Source: an uncultured Kangiellaceae bacterium
GTDB lineage: Bacteria > Pseudomonadota > Gammaproteobacteria > Enterobacterales > Kangiellaceae
DNA: 64,000 bases
Reading direction: 5' to 3'
Assembly (NCBI GenBank): GCA_905479925.1
Contig: CAJQOL010000009.1
Location: forward strand, 1 to 64,000
The translations under genes and the position numbers were made by a program. Positions within the stretch are counted from its first letter, which is position 1, and each line of letters starts with the position of its first letter. Below, one piece after another: positions 10,235 through 63,295 of the stretch. Under the pieces are notes generated by a model. That model saw only the letters and a program-made list of their open reading frames with translations. It was not told the origin of the DNA and did not search any database.

Positions 10235-11395
10235 ATGGCTCAATATACTACGTTTACTTCTGAATCTGTTTCTGAAGGCCACCCTGATAAAATTGCTGAC
10301 CAGATTTCCGATGCCGTATTGGATGCGATTTTGGAGAAAGACCAGAATGCACGTGTTGCGGTTGAAACCATGGTTAAAACAGGAATGGCTATCATTGCTG
10401 GAGAGGTAACCACATCAGCATGGGTCGATTTAGAAGATATTGTACGAAATACCATCTGTGATATTGGATATACAAGCTCCGATATGGGGTTTGACGGTAA
10501 GACTTGCGCGGTTATCAACGCAATTGGCAAACAATCCCCCGATATCAACCAAGGTGTTGATCGCGTAGAAAAAGAGCAACAGGGAGCCGGTGACCAAGGC
10601 TTAATGTTTGGTTATGCAACAAACGAAACCGATGTTTTAATGCCAGCCGCTATAACTTGGTCCCATCAACTGGTGGCCAAACAAGCTGAAATAAGAAAAA
10701 ACAATACGCTTTCTTGGTTACGTCCTGACGCAAAAAGCCAGGTGACGCTACGATACGATAACGGTAAACCGGTTGCCATTGACGCTGTAGTGCTCTCAAC
10801 TCAACATAACGAAGACATCAGCCAACCAGAACTTCAAGAGGCGGTTCGTGAGTTAATCATAAACCCGGTCTTACCAAGTGAGCTTATTCATGCGGATACA
10901 AAATTCCATATAAACCCCACCGGTAACTTTGTAATTGGTGGTCCAGTAGGTGATTGCGGATTAACAGGACGCAAAATCATTGTTGATACCTACGGTGGCT
11001 CCGCTCACCATGGTGGTGGCGCATTTTCTGGTAAAGATCCATCAAAAGTTGACCGTTCGGCAGCTTATGCAGGTCGATACGTAGCGAAAAATATCGTCGC
11101 CGCGGGCCTTGCAGACAGGTGTGAAATTCAAATTTCTTACGCCATAGGTGTAGCGGAACCTACCAGTATTAGCTTAAATACTTTTGGTACCGCAAAAATT
11201 AGCGAAGATAAATTAGAAGCTTTAGTACACAAACACTTCGATTTAACCCCGTTTGGTTTGATTAAGATGCTCAATCTAATTCGTCCAATTTATCAAAAAA
11301 CCGCTGCTTATGGCCATTTCGGCCGCGAAGATATTGACTTTACTTGGGAAGCTACCGACAAAGCCGATGCCTTAAGAGCTGATGCAAACCTTTAA
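10235..11395 (+). CDS. metK: S-adenosylmethionine synthase
   Basis: The 386-residue enzyme makes S-adenosylmethionine from methionine and ATP, releasing phosphate and pyrophosphate, in the cytoplasm. It has all the family landmarks: [18 protein letters not shown] at the N-terminus, [15 protein letters not shown] in the middle, [17 protein letters not shown], and the P-loop-like [16 protein letters not shown]. The length is that of the E. coli enzyme. AAGGA is placed 9 bases before the ATG. ahcY follows, separated by a riboswitch leader, so synthesis and recycling of the methyl donor are adjacent. No MetJ-type AGACGTCT boxes were seen upstream. Confidence 0.98.
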
Positions 11396-11561
11396 TATAT
11401 CTCTATAACTCTGGGCCCTTATATCAGATGCCCATTGTTGCGTTTTGCAACAACTGCGAGAGGTCGTATCGCTTAAAGTATTTTGACCATTGGACGATAC
11501 TATTAACCAATATATACAAAACAAAATACGCAAAACAATAAGTTTGATTTAAATACTAACT

Positions 11562-11650
11562 CCAATTGAGGGGCGCTGCAGCAGGCCAGTTAATTCTATA
11601 ACTTGGCTTGTCACGCTCAGTTGGATCTTCATTTTTTAAAGGGCGCTCAT
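11562..11650 (+). promoter_or_regulatory. S-adenosylhomocysteine (SAH) riboswitch upstream of ahcY
   Basis: The sequence shows the layout of the SAH riboswitch. P1 is formed by CCAATTGAG (11562-11570) and CTCAGTTGG (11616-11624), nine pairs with one G-U. Straight after P1 comes GGGCGCTGCAGC, matching the conserved GAGCGCTGCRRC core. The inner arm pairs GCCAGTT with AACTTGGC (one bulge). After P1 a short linker leads to GCGCTC (11643-11648), which pairs with GGGCGC at 11571-11576 to make the closing helix of the family. The Shine-Dalgarno GGAG at 11665 and the ahcY ATG at 11677 follow. In known cases SAH binding switches on ahcY, so excess SAH triggers its own removal. A covariance-model scan was not possible here. 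Confidence 0.87.
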
Positions 11651-11676
11651 TCTGAACCTAGAATGGAGACAACCTA

Positions 11677-13104
11677 ATGTCTAACAACACTCAAGAAAAC
11701 ACCTTTGATAATGACGGTGATTTTTTCATTAAAGATTTATCGCTTGCACCTTGGGGTGATAAAGAAATAGCCATTGCAGAAACTGAAATGCCCGGTTTAA
11801 TGTATATGCGTAAAGAGTTTGGCGATTCAAAACCGCTTAAAGGCGCACGAATTGCTGGCTCATTGCACATGACCATTCAAACCGCTGTTCTCATGGATAC
11901 CTTGGTTGCTCTTGGCGCCGAAGTACGTTGGGTATCTTGTAATATCTACTCTACTCAAGATCACGCAGCAGCAGCAATGGTTGCTAAAGGGATCCCCGTT
12001 TTCGCTTATAAAGGCGAAAGCTTGAAAGAATACTGGGAGTTTACTCACCGTATTCTAGATTGGGGGAATGGTGAAGTTGCTAACATGATTTTAGATGACG
12101 GCGGCGATGCGACTATGGCGGTAGTACTAGGCCAAAAAGCAGCTAAAGATATAAGCGTACTTGATAACCCTGGTAGCGAAGAAGAAATCGAAATGTTTAA
12201 TTCGATTAAAATTCAGCTTGAAAAAGATCCAACCCTTTATGACCGTTGCGCTGAGTCAATTCAGGGCGTTACCGAAGAAACAACAACCGGTGTGAAACGT
12301 CTTTATCAAATGCAGCAAGAAGGTGGTCTTCCTTTCTCAGCGATTAATGTTAATGACTCGGTTACTAAGTCTAAATTTGATAATCTTTATGGTTGTCGCG
12401 AAAGCCTATTAGATGGAATTAAACGTGCAACGGATGTAATGATTGCCGGTAAAGTTGCACTCGTTTGTGGCTATGGTGACGTTGGAAAAGGTTGTGCTCA
12501 ATCATTACGCGGCCAAGGTGCTACGGTTATGGTCACAGAGATCGATCCTATTTGTGCTTTACAAGCGGCAATGGAAGGTTACCGAGTTGTACGGACGGAA
12601 GATGTATGCCACGACGTTGATATCTTTGTTACCACAACCGGAAACTTCGATATCATAACTGAACAACATATGCTTAAAATGAAAAATGAAGCGATTGTTT
12701 GTAACATTGGTCATTTCGATAACGAAATTCAAATTGCTGCAATGAAAGAGTATCAGTGGGAAAACATTAAGCCACAGGTTGACCACATAGTATTACCAAA
12801 TGGCAATAAGATCATTATGCTTGCCGAAGGCCGTTTGGTTAACCTAGGTTGTGCTACTGGTCACCCTAGCTTTGTTATGTCTAATTCGTTTACCAACCAA
12901 GTTCTCGCGCAAATTGAACTTTGGGAAAATGGTGATAACTACGGCAACGAAGTTTATGTTTTACCTAAACATTTGGATGAAAAAGTTGCTCGATTACACC
13001 TTGAAAAAATTGGTGCTAAATTGACAGTTTTATCTAAAGAGCAGGCTGACTATATCGGTGTCGAGATTGACGGCCCGTACAAACCAGACCACTATCGTTA
13101 CTAA
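11677..13104 (+). CDS. ahcY: Adenosylhomocysteinase (S-adenosyl-L-homocysteine hydrolase)
   Basis: The 475-residue NAD-dependent cytosolic enzyme splits S-adenosylhomocysteine into homocysteine and adenosine. It relieves product inhibition of methyltransferases. Visible motifs are [13 protein letters not shown] near the N-terminus, the NAD-binding loop [42 protein letters not shown], the conserved [14 protein letters not shown] and the C-terminal PDHYRY whose Lys/Tyr reach the cofactor of the neighbouring subunit. Length and termini are standard. The SAH riboswitch in its leader suggests feedforward control. A strong terminator follows the stop, so the transcript ends there and rsmE needs readthrough or its own promoter. 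Confidence 0.98.
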
Positions 13105-13116
13105 GCTACACACTAA

Positions 13117-13150
13117 ACTCGCAAGCAAAAATGCTTGCGAGTTTTTTATT
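13117..13150 (+). terminator. Rho-independent terminator of ahcY
   Basis: ACTCGCAAGC (13117-13126) pairs perfectly with GCTTGCGAGT (13133-13142) over a 6-base loop, followed by TTTTTATTT. Confidence 0.95.
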
Positions 13151-13173
13151 TATTTCAACAAAAAACAATAATA

Positions 13174-13941
13174 ATGCGAAGCCACCGTTTCTTTACCGAT
13201 ATTCCACTCGGCATCAACTGCCAGGTAGAACTACCTGCAGATGCTAGCCATCATTGCGCGCAAGTCTTACGCTACAAAGAAGGTGATCAACTGACTGTTT
13301 TTAACGGTGACGGTTTTGATTACTTAGCGACTATTATTACTATAAATAAAAAACGTTGCGAAATAGATATTAACAAACAAATTGCGGTAAATAATGAGTC
13401 GCCACTAACTATTCACTTATTTCAGGGAATTGCAAAAGGTGACAAGATGGACTTAATCATCCAAAAGGCGGTTGAGTTAGGCGTTGCTGAGATAACCCCA
13501 CTATTTACCGAAAGATGTAATGTAAAGCTAAACAACAAACGCTTGGCTAAAAAGCTTGAGCACTGGAATAAAGTAAGCATTAGTGCTTGCGAGCAATCAG
13601 GGCGAGCTGTAATACCAAAAATAAATCAGGCAATTCAAATAGAAAATCTACAAATAGACAATCAACAAACCGCCAATCAACAAACCGACAATCAAAAAAT
13701 CGGTAAACTGATAACTTTCTATTTAGAGCCTACCAGTGAAAAGTCCTTTTCGGACTACCAAATAGAAAACAAAAATGTAGCCTTGTTAGTTGGTCCCGAA
13801 GGTGGTTTCTCCGATAGAGATTTACAACAAGCAGATAAGAAAAACCTTTACGGCGTATCAATGGGCCCAAGAATTTTAAGAACTGAAACGGCCGGTCTGT
13901 CTGCGATAGCCATCTTACAAAGCCATTTTGGTGACCTGTAA
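13174..13941 (+). CDS. rsmE: 16S rRNA (uracil-1498-N3)-methyltransferase
   Basis: This is a 255-residue SPOUT-family methyltransferase that makes m3U1498 in 16S rRNA using S-adenosylmethionine. The N-terminal PUA-like domain starts MRSHRFFTD with ADASHHCAQVLRYKEGD. The C-terminal trefoil-knot domain has KGDKMDLIIQKAVELGV, CEQSGRAVIPKI, LLVGPEGGFSDRD and MGPRILRTETAGLSAI. The ATG at 13174 is chosen because an earlier TTG at 13135 lies inside the ahcY terminator. Between SGRA and the knot strand there is a Gln/Asn-rich insertion of about 20 residues (DNQQTANQQTDNQ) encoded by short tandem DNA repeats, which is unusual for this enzyme. It follows metK-ahcY, fitting a methylation theme. Confidence 0.95.
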   Translation: MRSHRFFTDIPLGINCQVELPADASHHCAQVLRYKEGDQLTVFNGDGFDYLATIITINKKRCEIDINKQIAVNNESPLTIHLFQGIAKGDKMDLIIQKAVELGVAEITPLFTERCNVKLNNKRLAKKLEHWNKVSISACEQSGRAVIPKINQAIQIENLQIDNQQTANQQTDNQKIGKLITFYLEPTSEKSFSDYQIENKNVALLVGPEGGFSDRDLQQADKKNLYGVSMGPRILRTETAGLSAIAILQSHFGDL

Positions 13942-15764: not shown

Positions 15765-16103
15765 CTAAAACCTCAAAATGGACTAGGGGTGGCAGTAGCA
15801 AACCGACAGCAAATCAATTGCAAGCAGACAAAAACCGATAACCATTTTTCTACGGCTACAATCATGCAAACGGATAGAGCTAATTTCTTCGATATTCGCC
15901 CTATCACTTTGTTATTTTAGTCCAACTGCAATCGCGCGATCACATTATTTTATGCCTTTAGCGCTCTAGTTTATCGTTATCACCGTTTCAGCATAAATTG
16001 AGTCACATTTTTTCAAAGCAAACGGCCACCAATCAACTGCACTAAGCGACTAATTCTGTTAGTATTTTCATTCTAATAACAAATCCATGCTCGGGAAATG
16101 ACC
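15765..16103. other. Intergenic region upstream of the tricorn-type gene
   Basis: AT-rich DNA between divergent genes. No hairpin-T run and no small gene with a ribosome site was found. Promoters for both flanking genes must lie here, but none stands out. Confidence 0.45.
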
Positions 16104-19100
16104 ATGCCAAAAAGTCTCTTTAGAAGCCTCTTACCCAAACTAACTGGATTAGCGCTCGCTGCCAGTTCATTTTTATCTGCACCGCTTTTTGCGGATGACG
16201 CTACCAGACTTCTGCGTTTTGCTGATATTCATAAAGACAAAGTCACTTTTGTCTATTCTGGCGACATTTATATCGCTGATATTAATAGCGGAAAATCCGT
16301 TCGATTAACGTCTCATATAGGCTTTGAAACTTTTCCTAAATTCTCGAGAGCTGGAGATAAAATAGCCTTTGCTGCTGAGTTTAATGGTTCTAGACAGGTA
16401 TATACCATGAACTTAGATGGCAGCGATATGAAGCAAATTACCTTTTACAACGACGTTGGTGCGATGCCTCCCCGTGGCGGCTATGATTACCGAGTTATGG
16501 ACTGGTCAGCGGATGATAAAAACGTTCTGGTAAGGGGTAACCGTTTACCTTGGGGCGTTAGAATGGGTAAGCCTTATTTGGTGCCAATCGATGGTGGATT
16601 AGCCAAGCCAATGGCTGTTCCTGAAACCGGTGGCGGTATGCTTTCACCGGATGGTAAAAAATACCTATATACCCCTATCGACCGAGAATTTAGAACTTGG
16701 AAGCGATACCGGGGCGGCCGAGCACAAGATGTTTGGGTATATGATTTAGAGAAAAATATCAGTGAACGACTAACCACTAACCCAGCAACAGATAATCAAC
16801 CGGTTTGGGTTGGCGATAAAATCTATTTTCTAAGTGACCGCGAATACACCTTAAACCTTTTTGAGTACCAAAAAGGAAGCCAGCCAAAGAAGCTAACTGA
16901 GCATAAAACCCACGATTCACTTTGGGCTTCGGCAGGACCTGAAGCCTTGATTTATGAAAATAACGGCTTTTTATGGCGCTTTGATCCGAAGGAGCAGCAA
17001 ACCAAAAAGTTAAGCATTCAAATACAAGGACACCAGCAGGAGTTGATGCCTCAATTTAAGAATGTTAGTAATAATATTGAATCCATGGCTATTTCAAAAG
17101 ACGGAAGCCGTGCTGCCTTTGCGGCGAGAGGCGAAATTTTTACAGTGCCAGCGAAAAACGGGGAGATCCGAAACATTTCTAATTCGGCAGCTGCCAGAGA
17201 AATTAGCCTGTCATGGTCTCCAAACGGAAAGCATGTAGCCTATTTAAGCGATAAGTCTGGTGAGTATGAAATTTACCTGCGCCGCCAAGATGGCCTAGGT
17301 AAAGAAACGCAAATTACCAATAATGGAAAAATTTGGCGTTTTGCGCCAGTGTGGTCACCGGATAGTAAAAAGCTAGCCTTTTCTGACAAGAACCAAACCT
17401 TATGGGTTGTTGACATTAAATCTAAAAAAATGAATAAGCTCGATCGCTCTGATACCAACGATATCCAAGATTATAGTTGGTCACCCGATAGCCAGTGGCT
17501 TACTTATACTAAGCAAGAAGATAGCGGTTATGGCTCTATTTGGTTGGCAAATATTGAAACCAAAAAATCCCGCCAACTTTCTTCTGCGAATACTAGCGAG
17601 CAAGAACCTGTTTTTGGCAGTAACGGCAATTACTTATTCTTTTTATCAAATAGAGATTATAACCTGTCCTTTAGTAGCTATGAATTTAACTACCTGTATC
17701 ATCGAGCGACTCGTGTATATGCGGTACAGTTAAACAGCTCAGCGCCTGCACTTTACCCTTATCAAAGTGATGAAGTTGAGCTATCAAAAGACAAGGCTAA
17801 AAAATCTGAAGACGAAGACAGCGTTGAAGTAAATATTGAATTTAATAACTTCGAAAGCAGAGTTGTAGCACTTTCACCATCTTCTGGGGACTACCGTAAT
17901 CTGCAAACTAGTGGCGATAAAGTTTTCGTTATAAAAGCCGTCAATAATGATAACCAATTAATCGCTATTGATTTAACCGAGGACAAAGATGCGGATGTCG
18001 TTGTAAAGAACGCAACCACTTATTTGTTGTCTGCTAACGGAAAGAAAATGCTGGTAAGGCAAGGTGGCAGTTTTGCAATCATTGACGCAAAAGCTAAACA
18101 GACATTTGCTGACGGAAAACTTAACCTTAAAAACCTAACCCTAAAAATTGATCCAAAAGTTGAGTGGCAACAAATGTATGTTGATGGATGGAGAATCTTT
18201 AGGGATTGGTTCTACGATCCAAACATTCATGGTATGGATTGGTTGGCTATCAGAGAAAAATATCAACCTTGGGTTGATGCGGCGAAACACAGAACCGACC
18301 TTGATTATGCCTTTGGAGAAATTGCCGGTGAGCTCAATGCCGGTCATATTTATGTGAACGCTGGCGATCAACCTACAGCTGAAAGGCGCAACCATGGTTT
18401 ATTAGGTGCAGAGTTTTCTCAGCATAGCAGCGGTTTCTTCAAAATAGAGAAGATATTCTCCGGTGAAAACTGGCATGATAACTTCCGTTCGCCACTCACC
18501 CAGCCGGGAGTTAAAGCGGCGGCCGGCAATTATATTATTGCTATCAATGATCAACCTACCTCAACGGTAAATAATATTTACCAGCTACTCGAGGATACCC
18601 TAGGAAGAGATATAAAGCTGACACTAAATAACCGACCAAGCCTAAAAGGAAGCTGGACCGCGACCGTAAAACCGATAGCACGTGAACATAACCTACGATA
18701 TTTAGAGTGGGTAAATACTCGAGCGAAAATGGTCGATGAATTGTCTAATGGCCGAATTGGTTATATGCATTTACCGAATACCGCCATCGAGGGTAACAGG
18801 GAGCTTAATAAGCGCTTTTTGCCACAGGTGACAAAAGATGCACTAATCATTGATGATCGATATAACGGCGGTGGCTTTATTCCCGATAGGATGATTGAGC
18901 TACTTTCAAGAAAAACACTTAACTATTGGAAGTTTCGTGGTCTAAAACCTAACGCAACTCCGCTGATTGCTCATGATGGTCCAAAAGCGATGCTGATTAA
19001 TGGCTACTCAAGTTCCGGTGGTGATGCTCTACCTTATTACTTTAGAAAGTTAGGCTTAGGAAAATTAATCGGTACACGTACGTGGGGTGGATTAATAGGC

Positions 19101-19352
19101 ATTAGTGGAAATCCTAATTTAGCCGATGGAGGGCTATTATTAGCGGCGACTTTTAGAACCATGGATACCGATGGTAACTGGGTTGTTGAAAACGTTGGTG
19201 TCTCGCCAGATATCGAAGTCATTGACCGTCCGGAATTGATTCATGCGGGACAGGATCCGTCATTAGAGCGTGCAGTGAAGGAGTTATTAAAAGACCTTGC
19301 TGACAATCCAAGAAAATCAATTAAGGCACCTGCGGCACCAACCAAGTTCTAA
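16104..19352 (+). CDS. Exported tricorn-type protease (S41C), intact copy
   Basis: The 1,082-residue protein has a signal peptide (MPKSLFRSLLPKLTGLALAA, cleavage near LFA-DD). The N-terminal half (about 30-650) is a string of PD40/WD40-like beta-propeller repeats such as SPDGKKYLYTP, SWSPNGKHVAYLSD and WSPDSKKLAFSD. Next come a C1-like helical domain (WRIFRDWFYDPNIHGMDW), a PDZ domain (about 795-850) and the S41 protease core. Ser971 in YSSSGGD is the likely nucleophile; the His is in LNAGHIY-like text. Family members are large peptide-chewing enzymes. This one, with its signal peptide, should act in the periplasm. The ATG at 16104 is preferred over the one at 16098, since GGGA then has a 7-base spacer. 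A paralogue with an in-frame stop lies at 40.5-43.8 kb. Confidence 0.92.
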   Translation: MPKSLFRSLLPKLTGLALAASSFLSAPLFADDATRLLRFADIHKDKVTFVYSGDIYIADINSGKSVRLTSHIGFETFPKFSRAGDKIAFAAEFNGSRQVYTMNLDGSDMKQITFYNDVGAMPPRGGYDYRVMDWSADDKNVLVRGNRLPWGVRMGKPYLVPIDGGLAKPMAVPETGGGMLSPDGKKYLYTPIDREFRTWKRYRGGRAQDVWVYDLEKNISERLTTNPATDNQPVWVGDKIYFLSDREYTLNLFEYQKGSQPKKLTEHKTHDSLWASAGPEALIYENNGFLWRFDPKEQQTKKLSIQIQGHQQELMPQFKNVSNNIESMAISKDGSRAAFAARGEIFTVPAKNGEIRNISNSAAAREISLSWSPNGKHVAYLSDKSGEYEIYLRRQDGLGKETQITNNGKIWRFAPVWSPDSKKLAFSDKNQTLWVVDIKSKKMNKLDRSDTNDIQDYSWSPDSQWLTYTKQEDSGYGSIWLANIETKKSRQLSSANTSEQEPVFGSNGNYLFFLSNRDYNLSFSSYEFNYLYHRATRVYAVQLNSSAPALYPYQSDEVELSKDKAKKSEDEDSVEVNIEFNNFESRVVALSPSSGDYRNLQTSGDKVFVIKAVNNDNQLIAIDLTEDKDADVVVKNATTYLLSANGKKMLVRQGGSFAIIDAKAKQTFADGKLNLKNLTLKIDPKVEWQQMYVDGWRIFRDWFYDPNIHGMDWLAIREKYQPWVDAAKHRTDLDYAFGEIAGELNAGHIYVNAGDQPTAERRNHGLLGAEFSQHSSGFFKIEKIFSGENWHDNFRSPLTQPGVKAAAGNYIIAINDQPTSTVNNIYQLLEDTLGRDIKLTLNNRPSLKGSWTATVKPIAREHNLRYLEWVNTRAKMVDELSNGRIGYMHLPNTAIEGNRELNKRFLPQVTKDALIIDDRYNGGGFIPDRMIELLSRKTLNYWKFRGLKPNATPLIAHDGPKAMLINGYSSSGGDALPYYFRKLGLGKLIGTRTWGGLIGISGNPNLADGGLLLAATFRTMDTDGNWVVENVGVSPDIEVIDRPELIHAGQDPSLERAVKELLKDLADNPRKSIKAPAAPTKF

Positions 19353-21603: not shown

Positions 21604-22045
21604 TACCTAGTCGTATCCATTCAAATCGTTATTCATCGTCAATCAAAATTGTCGCTTAAGCTCATCTTGATTCGTTTCCGTTAAAACGCTCTCCCCCTAA
21701 CCCTTTGCATCAGGTCGCACAATTATCATCAGGAGCAAATGATTACATTGTAGATGTGCACCTTAGCAATACGAATAAATAGCTGTTCAATTGCCATTAG
21801 TTCTGTGACTTGATAACAGTGGTTGATTCTTGCGATCTAAATCCGTTGTGAAAATGCTGTAACTATTAATAATTGCGGATTACTTCAATTTCACCTCCAG
21901 AAATTCTGCATTTTTTTGAGCGAACGAATCTATACTATGTTTGAATATGTTTGAGAAAATATGCTGTACTCGCTGTCTTTTGGCCTGGCTGCCAGTAATT
22001 GCCATGACCGATTATCAAAAATAATAGAAAGGCTTTTTGACTAGA
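21604..22045. other. 442-bp intergenic region upstream of the TIR-WD40 gene
   Basis: AT-rich, with no small gene, terminator or tRNA seen. The gene that follows has an AAAGG near its start. No promoter pair was convincing. Confidence 0.45.
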
Positions 22046-25000
22046 ATGGATCACAATAAAATAGAATATCATGCATTTATTTCCTATCGACACCTTGATA
22101 ACGTTGAGTCTGGACGGCAGTGGGCGACTTGGCTACATCAAACAATCGAAACTTATCGAGTGCCAAGCGAACTAGTTGGAAAAATTAACAACCGTGGAGA
22201 GCCGATACCAGAGAGAGTTTTCCCTATCTTTAGAGATGAAGAGGCGCTTCCCGCTGATGCCGATTTATCGAACTCAATCGTACGAGCGTTAGAACAGTCA
22301 AAATTCCTTATCGTTTTATGCTCGCCACGCTCACGTACATCAACATTTGTGGCGGATGAAATTGACTACTTTAAAAAACTTGGCAGAAGTAATCACATAA
22401 TCGCCGGTATTATCGACGGCGAGCCTAATACGAGTTTAGATGACGGAAAGATTGACGCAGGTTTCACCAAGCAAGATGAATGCTTTCCTGAACCGCTGCA
22501 ATATACCTATGATGAAAAAGGTAATCGAACCAATAATCGTTCTGAACCCATTGCTTCAGATTTTCGTCTGACATTAGACAATAGAAAGCAACAAGGGTGG
22601 ACTAGCCCAGAAGCATTAAAACAGTACTTAGTTCAAAAAGACTCATTTAGTAAATCACAGATCAAAGAACTTTGTACGAGCTACGAAAAACAAATTAACC
22701 TGATGCTGCTCAAGATTATTGCTGGAATAATTGGTGTTCCACTGGATGATCTAACTCAAAGGGATAAGGAGTATCAATTAGCTCTTGAGAGACAGCGTGC
22801 TAAACGACTGACCCAATGGTTAGCAGCTATCGCAGTTCTCGCAATTATGGCGATAGGTGCTGGGGCGATGGCATGGCAACAAAAAGAGCAAGCAACCAAA
22901 GAGCGCAATAGCGCGCTCAGTACTCAAAGCCTTTTTCTCGCAGATCTAGGGCGCCAAAAATTTGATGAGCACCGTTATAATGAAGCAGTGCTTCTTGGCC
23001 TTAACGCCACACCCGGCCATTATGGAGGTGAACGCCCCTTAGTAGCCGAAGCTAGAGATGAACTCTACAGGGCAACAATCAATCAATCGAAACTGCAACA
23101 GTTTGATCATTGGACTGCTAATAAATTTATCATTTCGCCGGACCGTTCAACCGCGCTACTAACCTATGTTGCTAAAGCAGAGATTGTTTCTTTAACAAAT
23201 TTTGGCGTTGCGCATACTCTCACATACCGTAACAACCAGAATAGTTTTGAAAATATTGTGTCAGCTGACTTCGATAAGCCTAGCGAACGACTTTTAGTTG
23301 GAACAAAAAGTACATTTGCGCTAAATGCCGGTGAAACATACGAAGAACGCCTCTATTCAGGTACGGTTGAGTTGTGGTCGGTCAAAGGTGGCAATAAGTT
23401 GTTGAGCGTTGATTATGATGAGCCAATCAATAAGGTCATATTTAGTCCCGATGAGTCAAAGGCGTTGGTAGCTAGTGACAATGGAACGGCAAGTGTTATT
23501 GACTTTTCAACCGGCTCAATCGAGTTAACACTAGCTCATGAAGCCGCGGTGACTTGGGTAAGCTATTATGATGATGGGAATAAGCTCCTTACGATGGCTC
23601 AAGATCAATCGATAAAAATCTGGTCTGCCGATACTGGAGAAAAAATTCACTCGTTTGAATTTGATAACCAACCTGTTTCAGCTGTCATCAGTAATGATCA
23701 ATCGTTGCTGTTGGTGACTTTAGAAAACCAAGCCGATCTTTATTCTTTAGACTCATTTAAGCGAATTCAAAGCTATCCTCATAATTCCAAGGTTCCAGCA
23801 ATTTTTTCATCAAAAGACAACGTATTGACCACCGAGTACTATAGCATTTCAGAATCATCCACTCTGGATGGGGAAATACTAGCCATTTCAAGCTACGCTC
23901 ATGAAGAGGCTCTGAAATCAATGAAGGTCATCGGCGATAAGTTAATTTCAACCGATAGCAATAATCGAATTTATATTTGGTCAATGACTGACAAACGTTT
24001 ACTCAAGCAATTTAACCATGACGCAACAGCCGAGGCTCTTGAGCTTTTTGAAGAGCATAACAAACTGATAACCTCCTCAGACAGCGGTATCGTCGTTTGG
24101 GATGCTTCCCCTGAGTATAAAGATAATTATCAACTAAGCCCGGCGGAGACCTTTATCGAGCGACCTCGCTACACGCCATCAGGAAACAATATTGTCGACT
24201 CGGTGAATAACAAGCAAACTAAGTCTTACTTTCGGCACCTGCCAAGTAATAACATAGTTCATGGTGAAACGGTTTGGCCGGATCAGTGGAAAATGGCCTA
24301 CGACCATCAATCTCGAAAAGTTCTTTTACCCAAGTACCGCCAAAATGCAACTTTACTGTCGCTGGCCAGCCATGCGAGGATAGAGCTTCTAAAATCATCT
24401 CAAGTCGACTTAAGGGACGCTGTATTCAGCGCCGATGACCAGTCTTTGGCGCTAGTAGGATCGTCGATAAAGATCTATGATACCAATGACGGAACTATTC
24501 TTTTTGAGTTAGAGCATTCGGGCTCTACAAAAGGTTTCTTTATAAACGATGATTCGGAGTTTGTGAGTTTTTCCCAATACGATATGATTTTTTGGTCATT
24601 AGAAACAGGAGAAACGATTGGCAAGTACAGTATCGATAAATCCTTCTCCATCAAAGAAATAGCTTTAACTCCGAACAACAAAAATATTTTTATATATTCA
24701 GAAGGGAGCTATCGTCGATTTAAGCCTACTAAGGGCAGGTCTTATCTTATCTCGCCCGAAAATAAGAAAGCTCTTTTTACCTTTGAGCATGAACGCAAAA
24801 TAGATGAACCTCTCTTTTCCGCCGATGGTAAAATTTTTGTGGCGCCCGGGGCAGATCGCTTCTCCGAAAGTTATATCACCTATTGGTCTCTTGAAACCGG
24901 TAAAAAACTAACGACCTTAGAACACAACGGCTTTATTGAGAATGTTGGCCTTGCCAAAAACGGAAAGTATCTTTATAGCTGGACCGATGAAAAACACAAA

Positions 25001-26542
25001 ACGAAAACAGCAACATCTGATCGTGCTAAGGCGCTTCAAATTTGGAGTTTCCCTGGCGGTAGCAAAATTAGTGAAGTCCTGGTTGACCATGACCTACGCC
25101 GAGTAGAATTTAATTCTGACAGTTCTTATTTTCTGACAAAAGATGGCTACCAACAAGCAAAGCTTTGGCACACCACTAGTGGTGACTTGGTCAAGCAGTT
25201 TTCTGAGGAAGACTCAAACTACCAGCTAAGTCCCATCGAGAATAAACTGTATGTTTCTCGTAGCGATAAGACGCTTGAAATCTATTCGGGGCCCAGCTTT
25301 GAAAACGTAAAATCGATGACTATTGGTCATAAAGTTTCTGAAATTAAAATTTTCACCAACAACTCAACCCTAGCATTAGTTGGCGATGGGATATCGTTAT
25401 TGTCATTTGAAGACAAGCTACTACTTCATGACAAGCAGGCAAATTTTATTAGTCCTACTGGGGAAACGTTTTTCGCGAGCACGCCTATCAACGAGAATGT
25501 CATCAATGTTCGAGTTGCAAACGAGGGAATAACACTTAAGAGTTTTGGTCCATTTCTCAACCCGCCGACATTTACTATCGACAGAAAAGAGCGGTTTATC
25601 GCCGTAATGAGCACCGGCGCCGATAAAACATCGCACGCTCTGCAAGTGTTTGACTTCAACAGTGGCAAATTAATTAAAAATCTAAATATTGAAAGTGAGC
25701 GCTATTACTCTCCAACTTTTACCTTGGGCGGAGACTCTATTGTTTATAATTTCACTCCTAAATCGTTAAAGTCGTGGTCACTATTGGACAGTAGTCATAG
25801 CTATAAACATTCGGAAAATGTCGAGAATTTTGCCATTGGCACAAAAGGAGACCTTCTCGCCGTTTACTCCGCAGACCATAGAGCCGACATCTTTCGTATC
25901 ACCCTTTGGTCAATAAAGGACCAGAAAATAAAACTAGACCTTCCGCTGACCAGTAAAGTTTATGGTATGGCTTTTGACGATAAACAAAGCTACTTAGCTA
26001 TCGACCAGTCGGACTCTTTCAGTTTAATCAACCTTAACGACTTCGAAATCGAGAAAACCATCAGCGCAGACACCTATGTAACTAAACGGCACAACTCCAT
26101 TAGTTTTTTGGGCAATAGATTGCTGAGAGTACGAAGCGAAATCAACTTGTGGAATTTATCGACCGAGTCAATCGAAATGAATTTCGATTCCAAAACAAGG
26201 ATTGGCGACGTTTACAGTTATGAAACAGATTCGGAGCTAGAGAAGCTACTAATAAATCACAGCGATGGTGGAACTCTTTTTTCAATTGATACCGGAAAGC
26301 TCTTACAAACATTTCCAGAAAATCTGCAATCATCAGGTTTTAGCTCTCAAGGACTACCGCTAGTTTTGACCGATGTCGGTGCTAAAAGAGCTGTATCAAC
26401 CGACAATATTGAGTTTGAGCAACTCTATGACTATGCCGCTTCAAAACTTATTAATAACAAGCGATGTTTGACCGACAGCCAAAGAGCGCTTTTCTACCTA
26501 CCCACAGTGGATGATGAAAATGTAAAGAAAAAAGGCTGTTAG
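22046..26542 (+). CDS. TIR domain / transmembrane / WD40-repeat protein, 1,498 residues
   Basis: The protein has three parts. Residues about 5-210 are a TIR-like domain. It opens YHAFISYRH, has FRDEEALPADADLSNSI and IVLCSPRSRTSTFVADEIDYF. The Glu in VADEID (105 from this start) takes the place of the catalytic Glu of NAD-cleaving TIR domains. One transmembrane helix (about 255-277) follows, with RQRAKR before and KEQATKER after it. The remaining 1,200 residues are WD40-like repeats, seen as IKIWSADTGEKI, IYIWSMTDKRL, IFWSLETGETIG, ITYWSLETGKKL, ALQIWSFPGG, ITLWSIKDQK and INLWNLSTE. That is enough for two or more beta-propellers. By the charge pattern the TIR is cytoplasmic and the propellers periplasmic. 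A TTG at 22037 is an alternative start. No defence genes are adjacent. Roles as NADase or stress sensor are inference. Confidence 0.88.
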   Translation: MDHNKIEYHAFISYRHLDNVESGRQWATWLHQTIETYRVPSELVGKINNRGEPIPERVFPIFRDEEALPADADLSNSIVRALEQSKFLIVLCSPRSRTSTFVADEIDYFKKLGRSNHIIAGIIDGEPNTSLDDGKIDAGFTKQDECFPEPLQYTYDEKGNRTNNRSEPIASDFRLTLDNRKQQGWTSPEALKQYLVQKDSFSKSQIKELCTSYEKQINLMLLKIIAGIIGVPLDDLTQRDKEYQLALERQRAKRLTQWLAAIAVLAIMAIGAGAMAWQQKEQATKERNSALSTQSLFLADLGRQKFDEHRYNEAVLLGLNATPGHYGGERPLVAEARDELYRATINQSKLQQFDHWTANKFIISPDRSTALLTYVAKAEIVSLTNFGVAHTLTYRNNQNSFENIVSADFDKPSERLLVGTKSTFALNAGETYEERLYSGTVELWSVKGGNKLLSVDYDEPINKVIFSPDESKALVASDNGTASVIDFSTGSIELTLAHEAAVTWVSYYDDGNKLLTMAQDQSIKIWSADTGEKIHSFEFDNQPVSAVISNDQSLLLVTLENQADLYSLDSFKRIQSYPHNSKVPAIFSSKDNVLTTEYYSISESSTLDGEILAISSYAHEEALKSMKVIGDKLISTDSNNRIYIWSMTDKRLLKQFNHDATAEALELFEEHNKLITSSDSGIVVWDASPEYKDNYQLSPAETFIERPRYTPSGNNIVDSVNNKQTKSYFRHLPSNNIVHGETVWPDQWKMAYDHQSRKVLLPKYRQNATLLSLASHARIELLKSSQVDLRDAVFSADDQSLALVGSSIKIYDTNDGTILFELEHSGSTKGFFINDDSEFVSFSQYDMIFWSLETGETIGKYSIDKSFSIKEIALTPNNKNIFIYSEGSYRRFKPTKGRSYLISPENKKALFTFEHERKIDEPLFSADGKIFVAPGADRFSESYITYWSLETGKKLTTLEHNGFIENVGLAKNGKYLYSWTDEKHKTKTATSDRAKALQIWSFPGGSKISEVLVDHDLRRVEFNSDSSYFLTKDGYQQAKLWHTTSGDLVKQFSEEDSNYQLSPIENKLYVSRSDKTLEIYSGPSFENVKSMTIGHKVSEIKIFTNNSTLALVGDGISLLSFEDKLLLHDKQANFISPTGETFFASTPINENVINVRVANEGITLKSFGPFLNPPTFTIDRKERFIAVMSTGADKTSHALQVFDFNSGKLIKNLNIESERYYSPTFTLGGDSIVYNFTPKSLKSWSLLDSSHSYKHSENVENFAIGTKGDLLAVYSADHRADIFRITLWSIKDQKIKLDLPLTSKVYGMAFDDKQSYLAIDQSDSFSLINLNDFEIEKTISADTYVTKRHNSISFLGNRLLRVRSEINLWNLSTESIEMNFDSKTRIGDVYSYETDSELEKLLINHSDGGTLFSIDTGKLLQTFPENLQSSGFSSQGLPLVLTDVGAKRAVSTDNIEFEQLYDYAASKLINNKRCLTDSQRALFYLPTVDDENVKKKGC

Positions 26543-28347: not shown

Positions 28348-31300
28348 TTATTCCAAAACTATCTTTCTCATATTGTCATTAGAATTACGGTCAATCATCT
28401 TAATATAAGGATCAACACCGGCATATTCCGGCAATGTCTCTACTTCGATGACTAACGAATTTTCTCCTTTTTCTATCGTATGCTTCTCAAAATAGATGAC
28501 GTGCTCACTACCCTTACTTTTATCAGGGTCCTTTGAGAAAATACCGATATCAAACGGCGCAGATAAATCCGTTTCCGTTTCTTCGCCCTGACCGTCCGCG
28601 TAGAATTTATTAGCCTCAACCGTAAGAGTCAATTGGTAATTTCCATTATCCAATTTTTTAGCGGTCGCCTCTTTCATTTTTAAATCAAAAATCGTTATCT
28701 TCTTAAACAAATCGTCGATAAACGAATAATCCTCTTGATTGGCTTCAGCCTTTAAGAAGGTCAACAGATCTAAAGTAGTCGGATAGGGGTCAGCCACGTA
28801 TTGAAACTTCTCTAGGAATTTCTTCAAAGCCGTATTAACAGCTACTTCACCCATTCTATCTCTTAAGGCGTACATCACAACACCGCCCTTCTGATAGTGG
28901 ATATATTGCTGATTTTCAGCCCGGTACAGAGGCATTTCTTCTATCACTTCTGCACTTCGTCCTCTAAGGTAACGGTCCATTTCCCATTTAAGAAACTTTC
29001 TCAACTGGTCCTTACCGAGGTGTTTTTCCATTACCATATAAGCGGAATATTCCGATAACGTTTCAGATAGAACCGCGCTGCCCTGCACATTCGCTGGGGT
29101 AATTTGATGACCCCACCATTGATGCGCCATTTCGTGAGCAGTTACGAAATAAACATAGTCAATCGCATCGATATCTCTTAGGTCTGCGATGAATCCAATA
29201 TCTTCTGAGTATGGAATGGTATTCGAGAAACTCTGAGCGAAACTGGCATACCGTGGAAATTCGATGATTCTTACTTGACGATGCTGGTAAGGTGAAAACT
29301 GCTCACCAAAATAATCCAATGAATCTTTGACAGACTTTACCATTCGCTCCACATTTTTATCGTGCTTAGGATGATGGTAAACTTCAATCTTAACGTCGTT
29401 ATGAACATCTTCCTTAACTTGGTAACTACCAGATAAAAAGGAAACAAAGTTGAAGATAGGTGCATCCATTTTATAATGGTAGTAATTGCGACCGTTTTCA
29501 GTCCATTCCTTTTGCAGATAACCAGGAGAAATAGCGAACTGATCATCACTCGTCGAAACAATGGTTTCGAAGTTAATGAAGTCCGCTTCCTTACCGATAA
29601 AATTAGTTCCGTATTGAGATTCATCTTCTAACTTAGGTAACCGCTGTGGTGGTGGTAAGTCATGTTTACGTCGTTCATGTCGATCACTTATTTCACCGCC
29701 AGCGTTATAGCCAAAATGTGGGAATATCGCAAAGTTATTAACGAAGGAACCGTTAGCAACTACACCAGTATCTGAACCACGGTCCACAAAACCTTTGTTT
29801 GAACGCTCAAACTCAAAATCTAAACGGGAGCTACTTCCTGCCTCCATTGGAGGATTAAATTCGATCCAAGTAATTCCATATTGTTCGTCTCTTTCACCTT
29901 CGGAAGCGCCGTCAATTGAGAAAGATAACGATCGATTCTTGCCGGAATCCCAAGTCAACATCACTTTTTCTAACGGTGTAGAATTTTTGTTGGTTATTAA
30001 ATAATGACCTTTGGCCACTAGCTTTCTTTCCGTTGGATAAAAATCAACTTCCGCATAAACATCAGTAATTGTAGGCACTTCAAGATTTTCAAATTGTTTG
30101 TATTTCACTTCAAAAGCTGCCTGTAGGTCTAAGCTTTCTTCACGTGATACGTAATCATTCAAAACGCGAGTGTTGTAGTATATAAAACTACCTGTACCAA
30201 CAAATGTCACTAAACCGATAAAGATTGATGCTAGACCTAGTGTTCCCATATTTTTTGTTAACATCTTAAAGCGATACTTTAATTCATACTCGCTTCCTCG
30301 TCGCCATAAACCATATCCCAAGATAATAAGGATAAGAGTAAACCCGCTCCAATAAAGGTTGTACCAAAACCTAGGCTGTAAGAAATGACCATACTGATTA
30401 ATATCTGAGTAAACCATTCCAGGTGCCTCACCAAAATGCCACATATTATGCTCGAGGCCTAACTGTGAGAGCACGACCGTGGAAATAATGTAACCAACAA
30501 ATATCATCATTCCAATATACTTGTTTGGGCTAAGCACCTGAATCAAGATAGCCAAAATCGTCGTCATTACCATAGGCACAATAAAAGTAAGTGCTAGAAT
30601 TCCAAAATACACTGACCATTCGAAGTTAGCGTATGATTTTGTCATTTGATAAAAAACGGTGAAGGCCATTCCTGCTAAGCACAAACTGACAATAACGGAT
30701 ACTAACGCCAACAGTTTGGGAAAATAGATACTCCAGTTCTTAGTAGGAGTACTTTCGACAATATCCCCAATCCCTAAGTTTCTTTCTTGCCAAACAATCT
30801 CTGCGGAGTAATAGGTCATAACTATCATAACCATGAGTCCAAACGCGCCAACAATGTAGTCCGCCATATTTCTAGTCAATGGCCAATTGCTGGTCCCAAA
30901 CGAGCCGTTACTATCAAAGAACAATGTAATAAGCATGAACATGGAAAATACGCACAAAATAACGAATGGTGCACTTTTAATGATCTGCAGCACTTCGAAT
31001 CGTGTCCTAGCGAAGAATCGCAACCAATCGACACCTATGCCGTTCTCGGGCTTGCTTAATTTGAATCGTGAAGGTGGTTTTAGAGTACTAAGTTGTTTAT
31101 TCTTTTCTGATTTGATGTTTTTGGGTTTTCTTACATCATGGAAGTAGTGGGTTAAACCGACTAGAAGTAGAGTGACGGCCATCCAAATAACGCGATTGAC
31201 AAGTAGAACGCCTTCCAAGGGTACCAAATTGTTGTTTCTTTCGAACGGTGTCCAGTATTTAGTTAACTGACTAAACGCACCAAAACCAAGTGGATCAAGA

Positions 31301-31920
31301 AGTGCCGATACATCAATATAGTCCGGATTACTAAGCAACTGCCTTGAAATCGTATATAAGATAAAAAAGCCGACAACCCCTAGATACATCCCCATCATTG
31401 AACGAGTTTTCAAAGCAAAAATATAGAACATTGCCGAAAAGAATAAGAAGTTAGGAATTACAAAAACGATGTAAGTCCAGAGGTAAGGTAATAGGTTAGT
31501 GTCCCCTAGTCTTTCAGCATCGACAGTGGGCCAAAAACTTCCAATAAATGTTCCAAGGGGTACCATTAAGAAAATGGTCAAACAAAATAAATAGGCTCCG
31601 AATAATCGTCCCCATAAATATGCTCCATTATCGATAGGCATGGTCAACATGATGCCATCCATTTTAAAGTTAGTATCACGCACAGCGGTACCACCGACAA
31701 AATTGGCAACGACAAACATGCCAACAATAAGACTCATTATCAGCATAGTTTGGGTGATAGCATGTGGACTATTAAAGTTTACGTTAGATGATCCGCCAAT
31801 CTGAACGTTTGTCGAGATCATGGCGAAGAATGGCAATAAGAAAAAAAGCAGCAAAGTAACATAAAAAGAAGGCTGCTTTCGGAAGTAGTTAAATTCAAAC
31901 TTTGCGAGTTTTAGAAACAT
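28348..31920 (-). CDS. ABC-2 type permease fused to an M1-family aminopeptidase
   Basis: The 1,190-residue protein has about 600 residues of ABC-2 permease with at least 12 predicted membrane helices in two blocks (roughly 20-260 and 315-600). It then turns into an M1 peptidase domain. That part has HEMAHQWWGH beginning at His929, the zinc-binding HExxH, followed about 19 residues on by Glu in SETLSEY. A conserved Tyr (YIHYQKGG) is also there. The C-terminal part has a Ser/Glu-rich beta-sandwich. This fusion is a known architecture in annotated genomes. The adjacent upstream ATPase gene should power it. It may export peptides or process substrates in or outside the membrane; the substrate is not known. 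GGGGGGAAAT sits before the ATG. Confidence 0.92.
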   Translation of the reverse strand: MFLKLAKFEFNYFRKQPSFYVTLLLFFLLPFFAMISTNVQIGGSSNVNFNSPHAITQTMLIMSLIVGMFVVANFVGGTAVRDTNFKMDGIMLTMPIDNGAYLWGRLFGAYLFCLTIFLMVPLGTFIGSFWPTVDAERLGDTNLLPYLWTYIVFVIPNFLFFSAMFYIFALKTRSMMGMYLGVVGFFILYTISRQLLSNPDYIDVSALLDPLGFGAFSQLTKYWTPFERNNNLVPLEGVLLVNRVIWMAVTLLLVGLTHYFHDVRKPKNIKSEKNKQLSTLKPPSRFKLSKPENGIGVDWLRFFARTRFEVLQIIKSAPFVILCVFSMFMLITLFFDSNGSFGTSNWPLTRNMADYIVGAFGLMVMIVMTYYSAEIVWQERNLGIGDIVESTPTKNWSIYFPKLLALVSVIVSLCLAGMAFTVFYQMTKSYANFEWSVYFGILALTFIVPMVMTTILAILIQVLSPNKYIGMMIFVGYIISTVVLSQLGLEHNMWHFGEAPGMVYSDINQYGHFLQPRFWYNLYWSGFTLILIILGYGLWRRGSEYELKYRFKMLTKNMGTLGLASIFIGLVTFVGTGSFIYYNTRVLNDYVSREESLDLQAAFEVKYKQFENLEVPTITDVYAEVDFYPTERKLVAKGHYLITNKNSTPLEKVMLTWDSGKNRSLSFSIDGASEGERDEQYGITWIEFNPPMEAGSSSRLDFEFERSNKGFVDRGSDTGVVANGSFVNNFAIFPHFGYNAGGEISDRHERRKHDLPPPQRLPKLEDESQYGTNFIGKEADFINFETIVSTSDDQFAISPGYLQKEWTENGRNYYHYKMDAPIFNFVSFLSGSYQVKEDVHNDVKIEVYHHPKHDKNVERMVKSVKDSLDYFGEQFSPYQHRQVRIIEFPRYASFAQSFSNTIPYSEDIGFIADLRDIDAIDYVYFVTAHEMAHQWWGHQITPANVQGSAVLSETLSEYSAYMVMEKHLGKDQLRKFLKWEMDRYLRGRSAEVIEEMPLYRAENQQYIHYQKGGVVMYALRDRMGEVAVNTALKKFLEKFQYVADPYPTTLDLLTFLKAEANQEDYSFIDDLFKKITIFDLKMKEATAKKLDNGNYQLTLTVEANKFYADGQGEETETDLSAPFDIGIFSKDPDKSKGSEHVIYFEKHTIEKGENSLVIEVETLPEYAGVDPYIKMIDRNSNDNMRKIVLE

Positions 31921-52700: not shown

Positions 52701-53040
52701 CTAAATCATCGGATTGACTAAGACCGGTTAGCTCATACAAACGATCAACTAGTTTTGAACACCAAAACTTAGGATGCGCCTGCTTAGCCAATGTACCTGG
52801 CTCATTAAAATAGATTGACGCCTCTGATTCATCTAACAACTCATCAATTTTATCATCCCAATGGTCGTCATCGACGTTAAGCAGCCAAGCATTTACAGCA
52901 CTATTTTCTATGTGCTGACTCTCTATTGCATTTGGGGCGATGTTATATGTGACTTCGATTCCCGAAGCTAGTAGCAACTCGACCAGTTGTTTACTTTCTT
53001 CGTTTGGCGAGGTAACCAAGCCAATAGATAATTTACTCAC
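49717..53040 (-). CDS. chpB: ChpB, CheB-type methylesterase with a very long acidic linker
   Basis: The 1,107-residue protein has three parts. Residues 1-110 look like a receiver-like fold (IGLVTSPNEESKQLVELLLA) but lack the acidic pocket and a clear phospho-Asp. Residues about 115-915 are disordered and rich in Glu, Asp, Ser and Leu, with repeated GLxLES(I/M) motifs. Residues 920-1107 are the CheB methylesterase with Ser928 in GASLGGP, His in AQHID and Asp in MGQDG. It removes methyl groups from PilJ. A normal CheB has about 350 residues. A GTG start at 53040 is supported by GAGGAA and lies 8 bases past the chpA stop. Confidence 0.9.
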   Translation of the reverse strand: MSKLSIGLVTSPNEESKQLVELLLASGIEVTYNIAPNAIESQHIENSAVNAWLLNVDDDHWDDKIDELLDESEASIYFNEPGTLAKQAHPKFWCSKLVDRLYELTGLSQSDDLDANSDTNSKTPTTDAAEKQPASADVQKPNSPEESVQETTQDRSETIADEHQTEQSTTEAQTWTIEPETNDSQNDQLGDAIADDESLNSALQELEINSIGLPSDIAAELVSELEEISPDLDSAIEDAVALDSKIESTALSDAGLDAGLDAASDEAEDTSDEAGNVADAETVDEEVIELEDFGEFSLDENIDSNDEIELSESDNGVDLSEDIDVSLDETAELDVDLVDGIDEIELEDIDVADAPQETQQEIDLGFDSELSTETIDFDVPEEPPLESDLSSVQETEEIGNEILELAKANEATESLEPLEPSGSLESSESLESLESLESNAIDEFSSLSSDASLENQDSDQTLDSSAFEEIDFSSSSIPVLESMRDDDQQVLQSVYDVTEENESESESDSDSMKNNDQPIRDELSEAIEPEVELPDLELDIGLDLGEQESSEIELLEPDLDGDSLTLESIDAEVDERSSEEFNLSDSAEEQVDSSFSLDMDSDSPETELEASGLSLESMEPSDDSQQDSIQLDEQNQLFDSEEVTSTDELSEQSLLGSEGGLQLESIDEPKVSGKAVFIEEEESHVSASQQEPEPQQPSEQLESGGLTLESIGDEPTSGKAQYKIDGEVLEETLPPIEKESLTVEPEITEPEVSETEATGTEVIEPEAIGLEENNDFSLDLSDSEDSLITEEEPLLEEELTIDDNLSLDEFSLDEESELDDLEAASSESYDIVEPSNDSEPAIETGESIELMQPVEPEEPEQLSEPQKSAATVPDPQVEVHPDLEASSEEEELFDIPMLDDAATGVDFNAETPKTSQTTLGNCWVIGASLGGPAAVKRFLQSLPADINASFVIAQHIDENFLPVLADILTGSSHFDVVVANGSNDMCPGKIYLAPLKGKLIFLQDGSMLVDRSQKWSEPYSPCIDDVIESMSSVYKEKCGAIIFSGMGQDGLTGSRKMLDSGGAVWAQSVDTCANSSMPEAVINANIASVIAAPEVLAERLSRLIKSQ

Positions 53041-53048
53041 GCCGTTCC

Positions 53049-60604: not shown

Positions 60605-60619
60605 TTATATTCTCAAATA

Positions 60620-62680: not shown

Positions 62681-62749
62681 AGTTTGATTCCTGAAAGCAA
62701 TATTTTTAAAAATTCTAAAGAGACTAAACTCGGCCTCTATTATTTGAAG

Positions 62750-63295
62750 TTACAGTGCGACCTGCCTGAAGTGAGGCGTTTCAGCTAACGTAAATAAGCT
62801 AAATACATTCCACAATTTATCGTCACTATAAAAGCCACCATTGAGGTATGGCTTCATGGTCTCGTCGGGGACATCGACCTCTTCAACCCAGTTTTCGTCC
62901 TCAAAGTGATTCAAGCCAAGAATTTCATCGACAATTACACCGCAATGAACTCCTTGATAATTAACCACTAATATTCTCTGCCGTCTTAGCGCCGAAGACG
63001 CCTTTCTTCCTAGAAAACCATGTAAATCCATTATTGGCAGAAGTGTTCCTCGAATGTTAGCTAACCCTTTGACCCAAGGTTTTGCTCCTGGGACTTTAGT
63101 ATGAGGTGGAATAGAAAGGATCTCCGCCACCTCTTTAAGATTAACCAGGTAATCATTACCTGCTATTCGAAAGCCAACACCGGTCCAAAATCGGCTTAAA
63201 TCCTCTTCACGAGTCGATAAGCCGGCGTTCTCAAAACTTCGCTTCTCAACGAGTTGTAAGAACTCAAATGCTTGTTGATTAGTAAAATCAGCCAT
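62750..63295 (-). CDS. pilI: PilI, CheW-like coupling protein
   Basis: The 181-residue CheW-domain protein joins PilJ to ChpA. It has GFRIAGNDYLVNLKEVAEIL, VKGLANIRGTLLPIMDLHGF and ILVVNYQGVHCGVIVDEILG. These are the two CheW beta-barrel signatures. It is between pilH and pilJ, as in P. aeruginosa. Confidence 0.95.
   Translation of the reverse strand: MADFTNQQAFEFLQLVEKRSFENAGLSTREEDLSRFWTGVGFRIAGNDYLVNLKEVAEILSIPPHTKVPGAKPWVKGLANIRGTLLPIMDLHGFLGRKASSALRRQRILVVNYQGVHCGVIVDEILGLNHFEDENWVEEVDVPDETMKPYLNGGFYSDDKLWNVFSLFTLAETPHFRQVAL

What the first reader, a model, noticed from the sequence alone, without database searches (positions are those of the whole stretch)
22046..26542. Giant TIR-TM-WD40 membrane protein with a possible NADase site
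A TIR-like domain keeps a Glu at the expected catalytic position (VADEID), then one membrane helix, then about 1,200 residues of WD40-like repeats. By the charge rule the propellers face the periplasm. A receptor-like layout with a cytosolic TIR would resemble a bacterial surveillance or death-effector receptor. TIR domains of bacteria often cleave NAD; the rest is inference. No known defence gene lies next to it, so it would be a single-gene system.
Basis: partly seen in the sequence, partly recalled or inferred. Interest (0 to 1): 0.8.

Follow-up and report, generated by a model that had tools for sequence, protein, structure and literature searches.

The report
Bacterial Toll-like transmembrane WD40 receptor
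The gene encodes a membrane-spanning bacterial protein with a probable NAD-cutting TIR domain inside the cell and a large propeller-shaped sensor outside it, and its relatives sit beside nucleotide-sensor, channel and pore genes, so it is probably the receptor of a multi-gene alarm system rather than a one-gene toxin.

Summary
Window 22046-26542 (+) encodes 1498 aa: a TIR domain with Glu105 at the NADase catalytic position, one transmembrane helix (about 254-279), then about 1,200 aa of WD40-type propellers. Glu105 is invariant in 49 aligned homologues. The positive-inside bias (46 of 48), low ectodomain cysteine content and mostly even cysteine counts support cytosolic TIR and periplasmic propellers.

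The "single-gene system" reading is probably wrong. The TIR-TM module (50-68% identical between phyla) is joined to poorly conserved ectodomains. In other bacteria its neighbours are repeatedly predicted ADP-ribose-type sensors and membrane effectors: ion channel-TrkA_N-RyR (7 loci), SLATT with SLOG or hydrolase (6), TPR-S (4 loci plus a conjugative Rhizobium plasmid that also carries SLATT and patatin). RyR, TrkA_N and TPR-S are the three commonest families among 104 neighbour proteins.

TPR-S occurs in 47% of TIR-TM genomes against 3% of other Gammaproteobacteria. The window gene is an orphan, but its genome carries a TPR-S/SLOG-like/SLATT-like/kinase island elsewhere.

Best reading: a Toll-like receptor that makes an ADPR-type messenger for effectors encoded in trans. 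NADase activity, the ligand and anti-phage function are untested. New variant of TIR nucleotide signalling.

The parts
22046..26542 (+). Gene for the TIR-TM-WD40 protein, 1498 aa plus stop (ATG 22046; in-frame TTG at 22037)
22046..22420 (+). TIR core, residues 1-125
   Evidence: Pfam TIR_2 and ThsB_TIR; AlphaFold2 model and Foldseek
22358..22360 (+). Glu105, the catalytic-position Glu (S99-T-F-V-A-D-E105)
   Evidence: invariant in 49 of 49 homologues; aligns with the Glu of AbTir and L6/L7
22421..22804 (+). Family-specific C-terminal part of the TIR module and juxtamembrane helices, residues 126-253 (ECFPxPLQ, AEPIAxDFR, LMLLKIIAG motifs)
   Evidence: alignment A3; model with continuous helices 203-229 and 233-286
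22805..22882 (+). Transmembrane helix, residues 254-279; positive flank on the N side (RQRAKR)
   Evidence: hydropathy; positive-inside bias in 46 of 48 homologues
22883..23089 (+). Periplasmic linker with the conserved motif LLGLNATPGxYGGxRP
   Evidence: alignment A5
23090..26314 (+). Beta-propeller ectodomain (WD40-type), about residues 349-1423; residues about 440-590 modelled best
26465..26539 (+). C-terminal tail CLT..QR..FYLP...KKGC with Cys1474 and Cys1498, the only cysteines after the membrane helix; probable disulfide cap

Best explanation
A single-pass inner-membrane receptor. The ~1,200-residue WD40 ectodomain sits in the periplasm and detects an unknown extracellular or envelope cue. 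Ligand-driven clustering through the rigid transmembrane and juxtamembrane helix packs the cytosolic TIR domains together and switches on Glu105-dependent cleavage of NAD+. The product is an ADP-ribose-type second messenger. It is read by separately encoded sensor/effector proteins: in this genome most likely the TPR-S, SLOG-like and SLATT-like (two-TM pore) proteins and kinase of the island on contig C91; in relatives, RyR-TrkA_N ion channels, SLATT-hydrolases or patatin phospholipases next to the receptor gene. The outcome is membrane permeabilisation or growth arrest, most likely as a defence against phages or other attackers. Shown: fold, Glu position, layout, partner linkage and co-occurrence. 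Inferred: catalysis, messenger identity, pairing in trans, cue and defensive role.
For: TIR fold with invariant Glu105. Topology: 46 of 48 homologues have more Lys/Arg on the TIR side of the helix; ectodomain Cys 0.4% against 1.1% in the cytosolic part; even cysteine number in 18 of 21. TIR module 50-68% identical across Pseudomonadota, Verrucomicrobiota and others, while ectodomains are at most ~30% identical or unrelated (WD40, TPR, Sel1), as expected for one output joined to many inputs. Neighbour census: RyR 8, TrkA_N 5, TPR-S 4 of 104 proteins are the top families. Operon-like pairs: gaps of 3-4 bp (L042, L046, L055), about 17 bp (L059), 65 bp (L049), and immediately adjacent (L039). A conjugative Rhizobium plasmid carries SLATT, patatin, TPR-S and two TIR-TM genes in 19 kb. 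Co-occurrence: strong TPR-S hits in exactly the 4 of 21 relatives that have TIR-TM; 15 of 32 TIR-TM genomes against 11 of 361 others, Fisher 6e-12. Literature: RyR-domain proteins bind and degrade cADPR signals (PMC13232231); SLATT predicted to be an ADPr-regulated membrane effector (PMC9503650); SLOG domains bind 3'cADPR (PMC11204291).
Against: The window gene has no effector beside it; pairing with the C91 island rests on co-occurrence. No biochemical data. The motif has Phe101 where many NADase TIRs have Trp. TPR-S and TIR-TM may both favour larger genomes, and the background genomes were not size-matched or phylogenetically corrected. Many homologues (for example L033, L036, L056, L060) sit among housekeeping genes, and TPR-S was not found in three of these genomes (L033, L036, L056). 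PADLOC finds no recurrent known defence neighbours.
Confidence: 0.57

Rival explanations
1. Direct suicide NADase: on activation the TIR domains simply deplete NAD+, so the gene acts alone as an abortive-infection receptor.
For: Glu105 conserved. The window gene is an orphan. SpbK is an abortive-infection TIR NADase (PMC12847820).
Against: Repeated linkage and co-occurrence with RyR, TPR-S, SLOG and SLATT genes is not expected if the TIR acts alone. Four paralogues in one genome would be four suicide switches.
Confidence: 0.17
2. Non-defensive envelope or environment receptor: same TIR messenger chemistry, but used to regulate physiology (surface contact, envelope stress, community behaviour).
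For: Most homologues sit among ordinary chromosomal genes. The C91 island carries a Ser/Thr kinase and an FHA-trypsin protein, suggesting regulation. No relatives in phages or viral contigs.
Against: Patchy distribution (4 of 21 relatives, 8 of 369 class members); the site lacks the gene in sister species; closest TIR relatives are in another family; broken copies are frequent; presence on a conjugative plasmid. Such turnover is typical of conflict genes.
Confidence: 0.18
3. Non-enzymatic TIR: the domain only self-associates and recruits partners, as in animal TLR adaptors.
For: TIRs were first known as scaffolds. Phe101 replaces Trp of the usual motif.
Against: Glu105, Ser99, the F-R-D-E motif and Y-R-H-x-D-N are invariant in 49 homologues over several phyla, more than a scaffold needs; linkage to nucleotide-sensor domains.
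Confidence: 0.06
4. Degenerate or decaying gene of no present function.
For: Paralogue C7 has an in-frame stop, and L034, L038, L087 and L094 have frames broken within the TIR region.
Against: The window frame is intact over 1498 codons with the genome's usual GC and GC3, and all family-invariant residues are present.
Confidence: 0.02

Closest known systems
Thoeris (ThsB TIR plus ThsA SIR2-SLOG, TM-macro or caspase-like effectors)
   Same: TIR makes ADPR-type messengers; separate nucleotide-sensing effectors, some of them membrane-disrupting. ThsB_TIR Pfam model matches above its cut-off.
   Different: Here the TIR protein is itself a transmembrane receptor with a giant periplasmic ectodomain; partners in relatives are RyR-TrkA_N channels, SLATT, TPR-S or patatin rather than ThsA, and the window copy has none beside it.
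NAD/ADPr-centred conflict network (TIR, SLOG, SLATT, RyR, TPR-S) predicted by Burroughs, Iyer, Aravind and colleagues
   Same: Same parts list (partly from memory); SLATT as ADPr-gated membrane effector is their prediction (PMC9503650). Their 2015 paper was not available.
   Different: I found no description in the searchable library of a TIR-TM-WD40 receptor paired with RyR-TrkA_N channels; it may be mentioned in papers not held.
Animal Toll-like receptors
   Same: Single-pass receptor, repeat ectodomain outside, TIR inside.
   Different: TIR is N-terminal (type II topology); ectodomain is WD40, TPR or Sel1, not LRR; output probably enzymatic. Convergent layout, no evidence of common ancestry beyond the TIR domain.
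STAND/NLR-like proteins with WD40 (APAF-1, TIR-NB-ARC-WD40) and DUF4062/TEP1/Swarozyc
   Same: TIR-like NADase or death domain plus WD40 sensor.
   Different: No NB-ARC/STAND ATPase seen; a membrane helix takes its place; canonical TIR, not DUF4062.

Membership tests
TIR domain | TIR profile match and fold | tested here: met
   TIR_2 28.1 bits (cut-off 28), model pLDDT 89.4, Foldseek hits to TIRs
TIR NADase | Glu in S-x-W-x-x-x-E at the alpha-C position | tested here: met
   E105 invariant in 49 of 49, aligned with AbTir and L6/L7 Glu; Trp replaced by Phe here, mostly Tyr in homologues
TIR NADase | NAD+ cleavage | not testable with these tools
   needs purified protein
Thoeris | thsA (SIR2-SLOG, TM-macro or caspase-like) beside the TIR gene | tested here: not met
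   neighbours are bacterioferritins, tricorn protease, M1 peptidase-ABC proteins
Thoeris | ThsB model of PADLOC | tested here: inconclusive
   18 bits over 41 residues, E 3e-4
TIR messenger system with trans effector (works like) | nucleotide-sensor or membrane-effector genes linked to the family | tested here: met
   in trans only for the window genome
Toll-like receptor | single TM, TIR in cytosol, repeat ectodomain outside | tested here: met
   by prediction:
Toll-like receptor | LRR ectodomain, C-terminal TIR | tested here: not met
   WD40 ectodomain, N-terminal TIR
STAND/NLR | NB-ARC or other STAND NTPase | tested here: not met
   no such match among the best 25 of 34 Pfam families listed; residues 126-440 are TIR C-part, helix and linker

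The most novel reading that the evidence does not exclude
Bacteria have Toll-like transmembrane receptors: extracytoplasmic WD40, TPR or Sel1 ectodomains joined to a fixed cytosolic TIR enzyme whose ADPR-type messenger opens RyR-domain ion channels or SLATT pores. This would be a bacterial 'surface receptor to cyclic-ADPR to RyR channel' axis.
Probability: 0.36. Interest if true: 0.92.

Novelty: new variant of a known kind. Interest (0 to 1): 0.77.

Why it matters
Described bacterial TIR defence proteins that I could read about sense phage parts inside the cell. A receptor that senses outside the membrane and signals inside through NAD-derived messengers would give bacteria a functional counterpart of Toll-like receptor signalling. 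The operon pairing with RyR-TrkA_N channels would make the old idea of cADPR gating RyR channels testable in a two-gene bacterial system.

Tried and rejected
PADLOC and NCBIfam on the protein: only a weak ThsB match, nothing in NCBIfam. PADLOC on 104 neighbours of homologues: no recurrent known defence family. RyR in the window's genome: none, and the 14 control genomes also lack it, so this negative is weak. RyR-channel profile A6 in the genome: only weak TrkA_N-type matches. Relatives in viral contigs and phages: none. Ortholog search: no relative has an orthologue at this site; the flanking Bfr pair is syntenic in G001 and G003 without the gene. Reversed topology (propellers in the cytosol) rejected by charge bias and cysteine pattern. 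Secreted host-directed TIR effector rejected: membrane anchor, giant periplasmic part. STAND protein rejected: no NTPase domain seen.
Full report
1. The observation. The frame 22037-26542 (+) is intact; from ATG 22046 it encodes 1498 aa. Pfam finds TIR_2 at residues 11-125 (28.1 bits, cut-off 28), ThsB_TIR at 55-120 (27.4, cut-off 21.2), and many WD40/beta-propeller families at about 440-1044. Hydropathy shows one strong membrane helix at 254-279. GC and GC3 match neighbouring genes.

2. The TIR domain. An alignment of 49 homologous N-terminal regions (A3) keeps S13, Y14, R15, H16, D18, N19, E35, F62-R63-D64-E65, S99 and E105 invariant. AlphaFold2 gives pLDDT 89.4 with an alpha/beta fold followed by a continuous helix 233-286 through the membrane. 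Foldseek against the PDB returns SPARTA TIR-APAZ, AbTir, L7, RUN1, TLRs, SARM1 and ThsB. In HMM alignments E105 lies on the Glu of the S-x-W-x-x-x-E motif of AbTir and of L6/L7. The Trp of that motif is Phe here and mostly Tyr in relatives.

3. Topology. Of 49 full-length family members, 46 have more Lys/Arg on the TIR side of the helix and 2 have fewer. Cysteine is rarer after the helix (0.4% against 1.1%), and in the mainly gammaproteobacterial WD40-type set 18 of 21 have an even number. In this protein only two cysteines follow the helix, both in a conserved C-terminal tail, CLTxxER..xxL...Q..R.C. Cytosolic TIR and periplasmic propellers fit best.

4. The ectodomain. It is predicted nearly all beta (model mean pLDDT 63.8; a central stretch around residues 440-590 above 85) and its best PDB match is the repetitive WD40 propeller 2ymu. 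Across the family the TIR module is 50-68% identical for most members, from Alteromonas to Verrucomicrobia, whereas ectodomains are mostly 20-30% identical where they align over a long stretch at all. About half are WD40; others are TPR or Sel1, or match nothing. One conserved output module is combined with many unrelated input modules.

5. Family in this genome and relatives. The genome has four giant TIR-repeat proteins, on contigs C9 (this one), C217, C2 and C7; C7 is interrupted by an in-frame stop. Relatives are named Kangiellaceae in public records. Only 4 of 21 relatives, own genome included, and 8 of 369 sampled members of the class carry the family. In same-genus genomes G001 and G003 the flanking bacterioferritin pair and the genes at 10235-13938 are syntenic, but no TIR gene is there. 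The window's TIR groups with Alteromonas arenosi (support 100/97) and a Glaciecola, not with its own paralogues. This indicates turnover and horizontal transfer.

6. Partners. Clustering neighbours of the homologues and Pfam gave three recurrent classes. (a) TM or Ion_trans_2, TrkA_N, RyR, some with a GHR-type SLOG-like C-terminus: L042, L046, L055 (gap 3-4 bp upstream), L049 (65 bp downstream), L059 (about 17 bp), L061 (divergent), L086. Gene order differs between lineages. (b) SLATT with an alpha/beta-hydrolase or a SLOG-like N-terminus: L039/L041 (immediately downstream), L038, L068, L085, L090, L092; the SLOG assignment is by motif in my alignments A6/A7 and was not called by Pfam. (c) RyR-TPR-S-cyclase proteins beside L043 and L087. 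In an unselected Pfam count over 104 neighbours, RyR (8), TrkA_N (5) and TPR-S (4) lead; nearly everything else is a singleton or pair. A conjugative Rhizobium leguminosarum plasmid carries SLATT_1/DUF4231, DUF3380, patatin, TPR-S, a HEAT protein, two TIR-TM genes and a separate TIR and WD40 gene within 19 kb.

7. Partners in the window's genome. None adjoin the gene. A SLATT-trained profile matches contig C91 (E 5e-10; Pfam DUF4231 below its cut-off) beside a TPR-kinase, a 548-aa TM protein, a 317-aa SLOG-like protein and a TPR-S protein, with an FHA-trypsin gene alongside. The island is conserved in G002, G004 (split over contigs) and, without SLATT, in G008. Strong TPR-S matches (above 50 bits) are found in exactly G000, G002, G004 and G008, the four genomes with TIR-TM (Fisher 1.7e-4). 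In G002 the island contig ends in the C-terminal part of a C217-type TIR-WD40 protein, and another contig ends in its first ~1,425 residues; probably one gene, which would put receptor and island side by side (inference). Over larger samples TPR-S occurs in 15 of 32 TIR-TM genomes (8 of 17 Gammaproteobacteria) against 11 of 361 TIR-TM-free Gammaproteobacteria (Fisher 5.6e-12 and 1.5e-7). These tests are not corrected for genome size or phylogeny, and four of the 15 have TPR-S at the TIR locus itself.

8. Interpretation. RyR-domain phage proteins bind and degrade 2'/3'cADPR (PMC13232231). SLOG of ThsA binds 3'cADPR, and TM-macro ThsA is a nucleotide-triggered membrane effector (PMC11204291). 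SLATT is predicted to be an ADPr-regulated membrane effector (PMC9503650). Given these partners, the TIR most likely makes an ADPR-type messenger rather than merely depleting NAD. Patchiness, empty sites, broken copies, plasmid carriage and ectodomain diversity favour a conflict role; the ligand is unknown.

9. Known or new. All parts belong to known families. The arrangement (transmembrane receptor, fixed TIR, interchangeable periplasmic sensors, channel or pore effectors) was not found in the searchable literature, with the caveat that key papers are not held. I rate it a new variant of TIR nucleotide signalling.

Noticed in passing
G000:C7:57900-61452 (L010:3901-7452): Paralogous TIR-TM gene interrupted by one in-frame stop codon; frames are also broken within the TIR region in L034, L038, L087 and L094, so decay is common in the family.
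   Followed up: partly
G000:C91 (L109:4281-14449), also L111, L121, L122: Conserved island of FHA-trypsin, TPR-Ser/Thr kinase, SLATT/DUF4231-like, TM protein, SLOG-like and TPR-S genes; looks like an undescribed signalling cassette.
   Followed up: yes
L138 (CP050566.1 36000-55000): Rhizobium conjugative plasmid cassette: SLATT, DUF3380, patatin, TPR-S, HEAT, two TIR-TM genes and a split TIR + WD40 pair.
   Followed up: partly
L031:8642-9571 (G008): Second TIR-TM gene of G008 is followed by a protein whose start looks like a SIR2 domain (FFVGAGASRLLGLPSW), with transposase copies on both sides.
   Followed up: no
L027:350-1462 (G002): Patatin-like phospholipase two genes from a tandem pair of TIR-TM and TIR-WD40 genes.
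   Followed up: partly
window 49717-63702: Chemosensory cluster like Pil-Chp: CheW, PilJ-type MCP, CheR, 2218-aa CheA with six Hpt domains, CheB.
   Followed up: no
window 28348-31920: 1190-aa fusion of ABC-2 membrane segments with an M1 peptidase domain, next to an ABC ATPase gene.
   Followed up: no
window 16098-19352: Tricorn-type protease homologue with a propeller, upstream of the bacterioferritin pair and the TIR gene.
   Followed up: no
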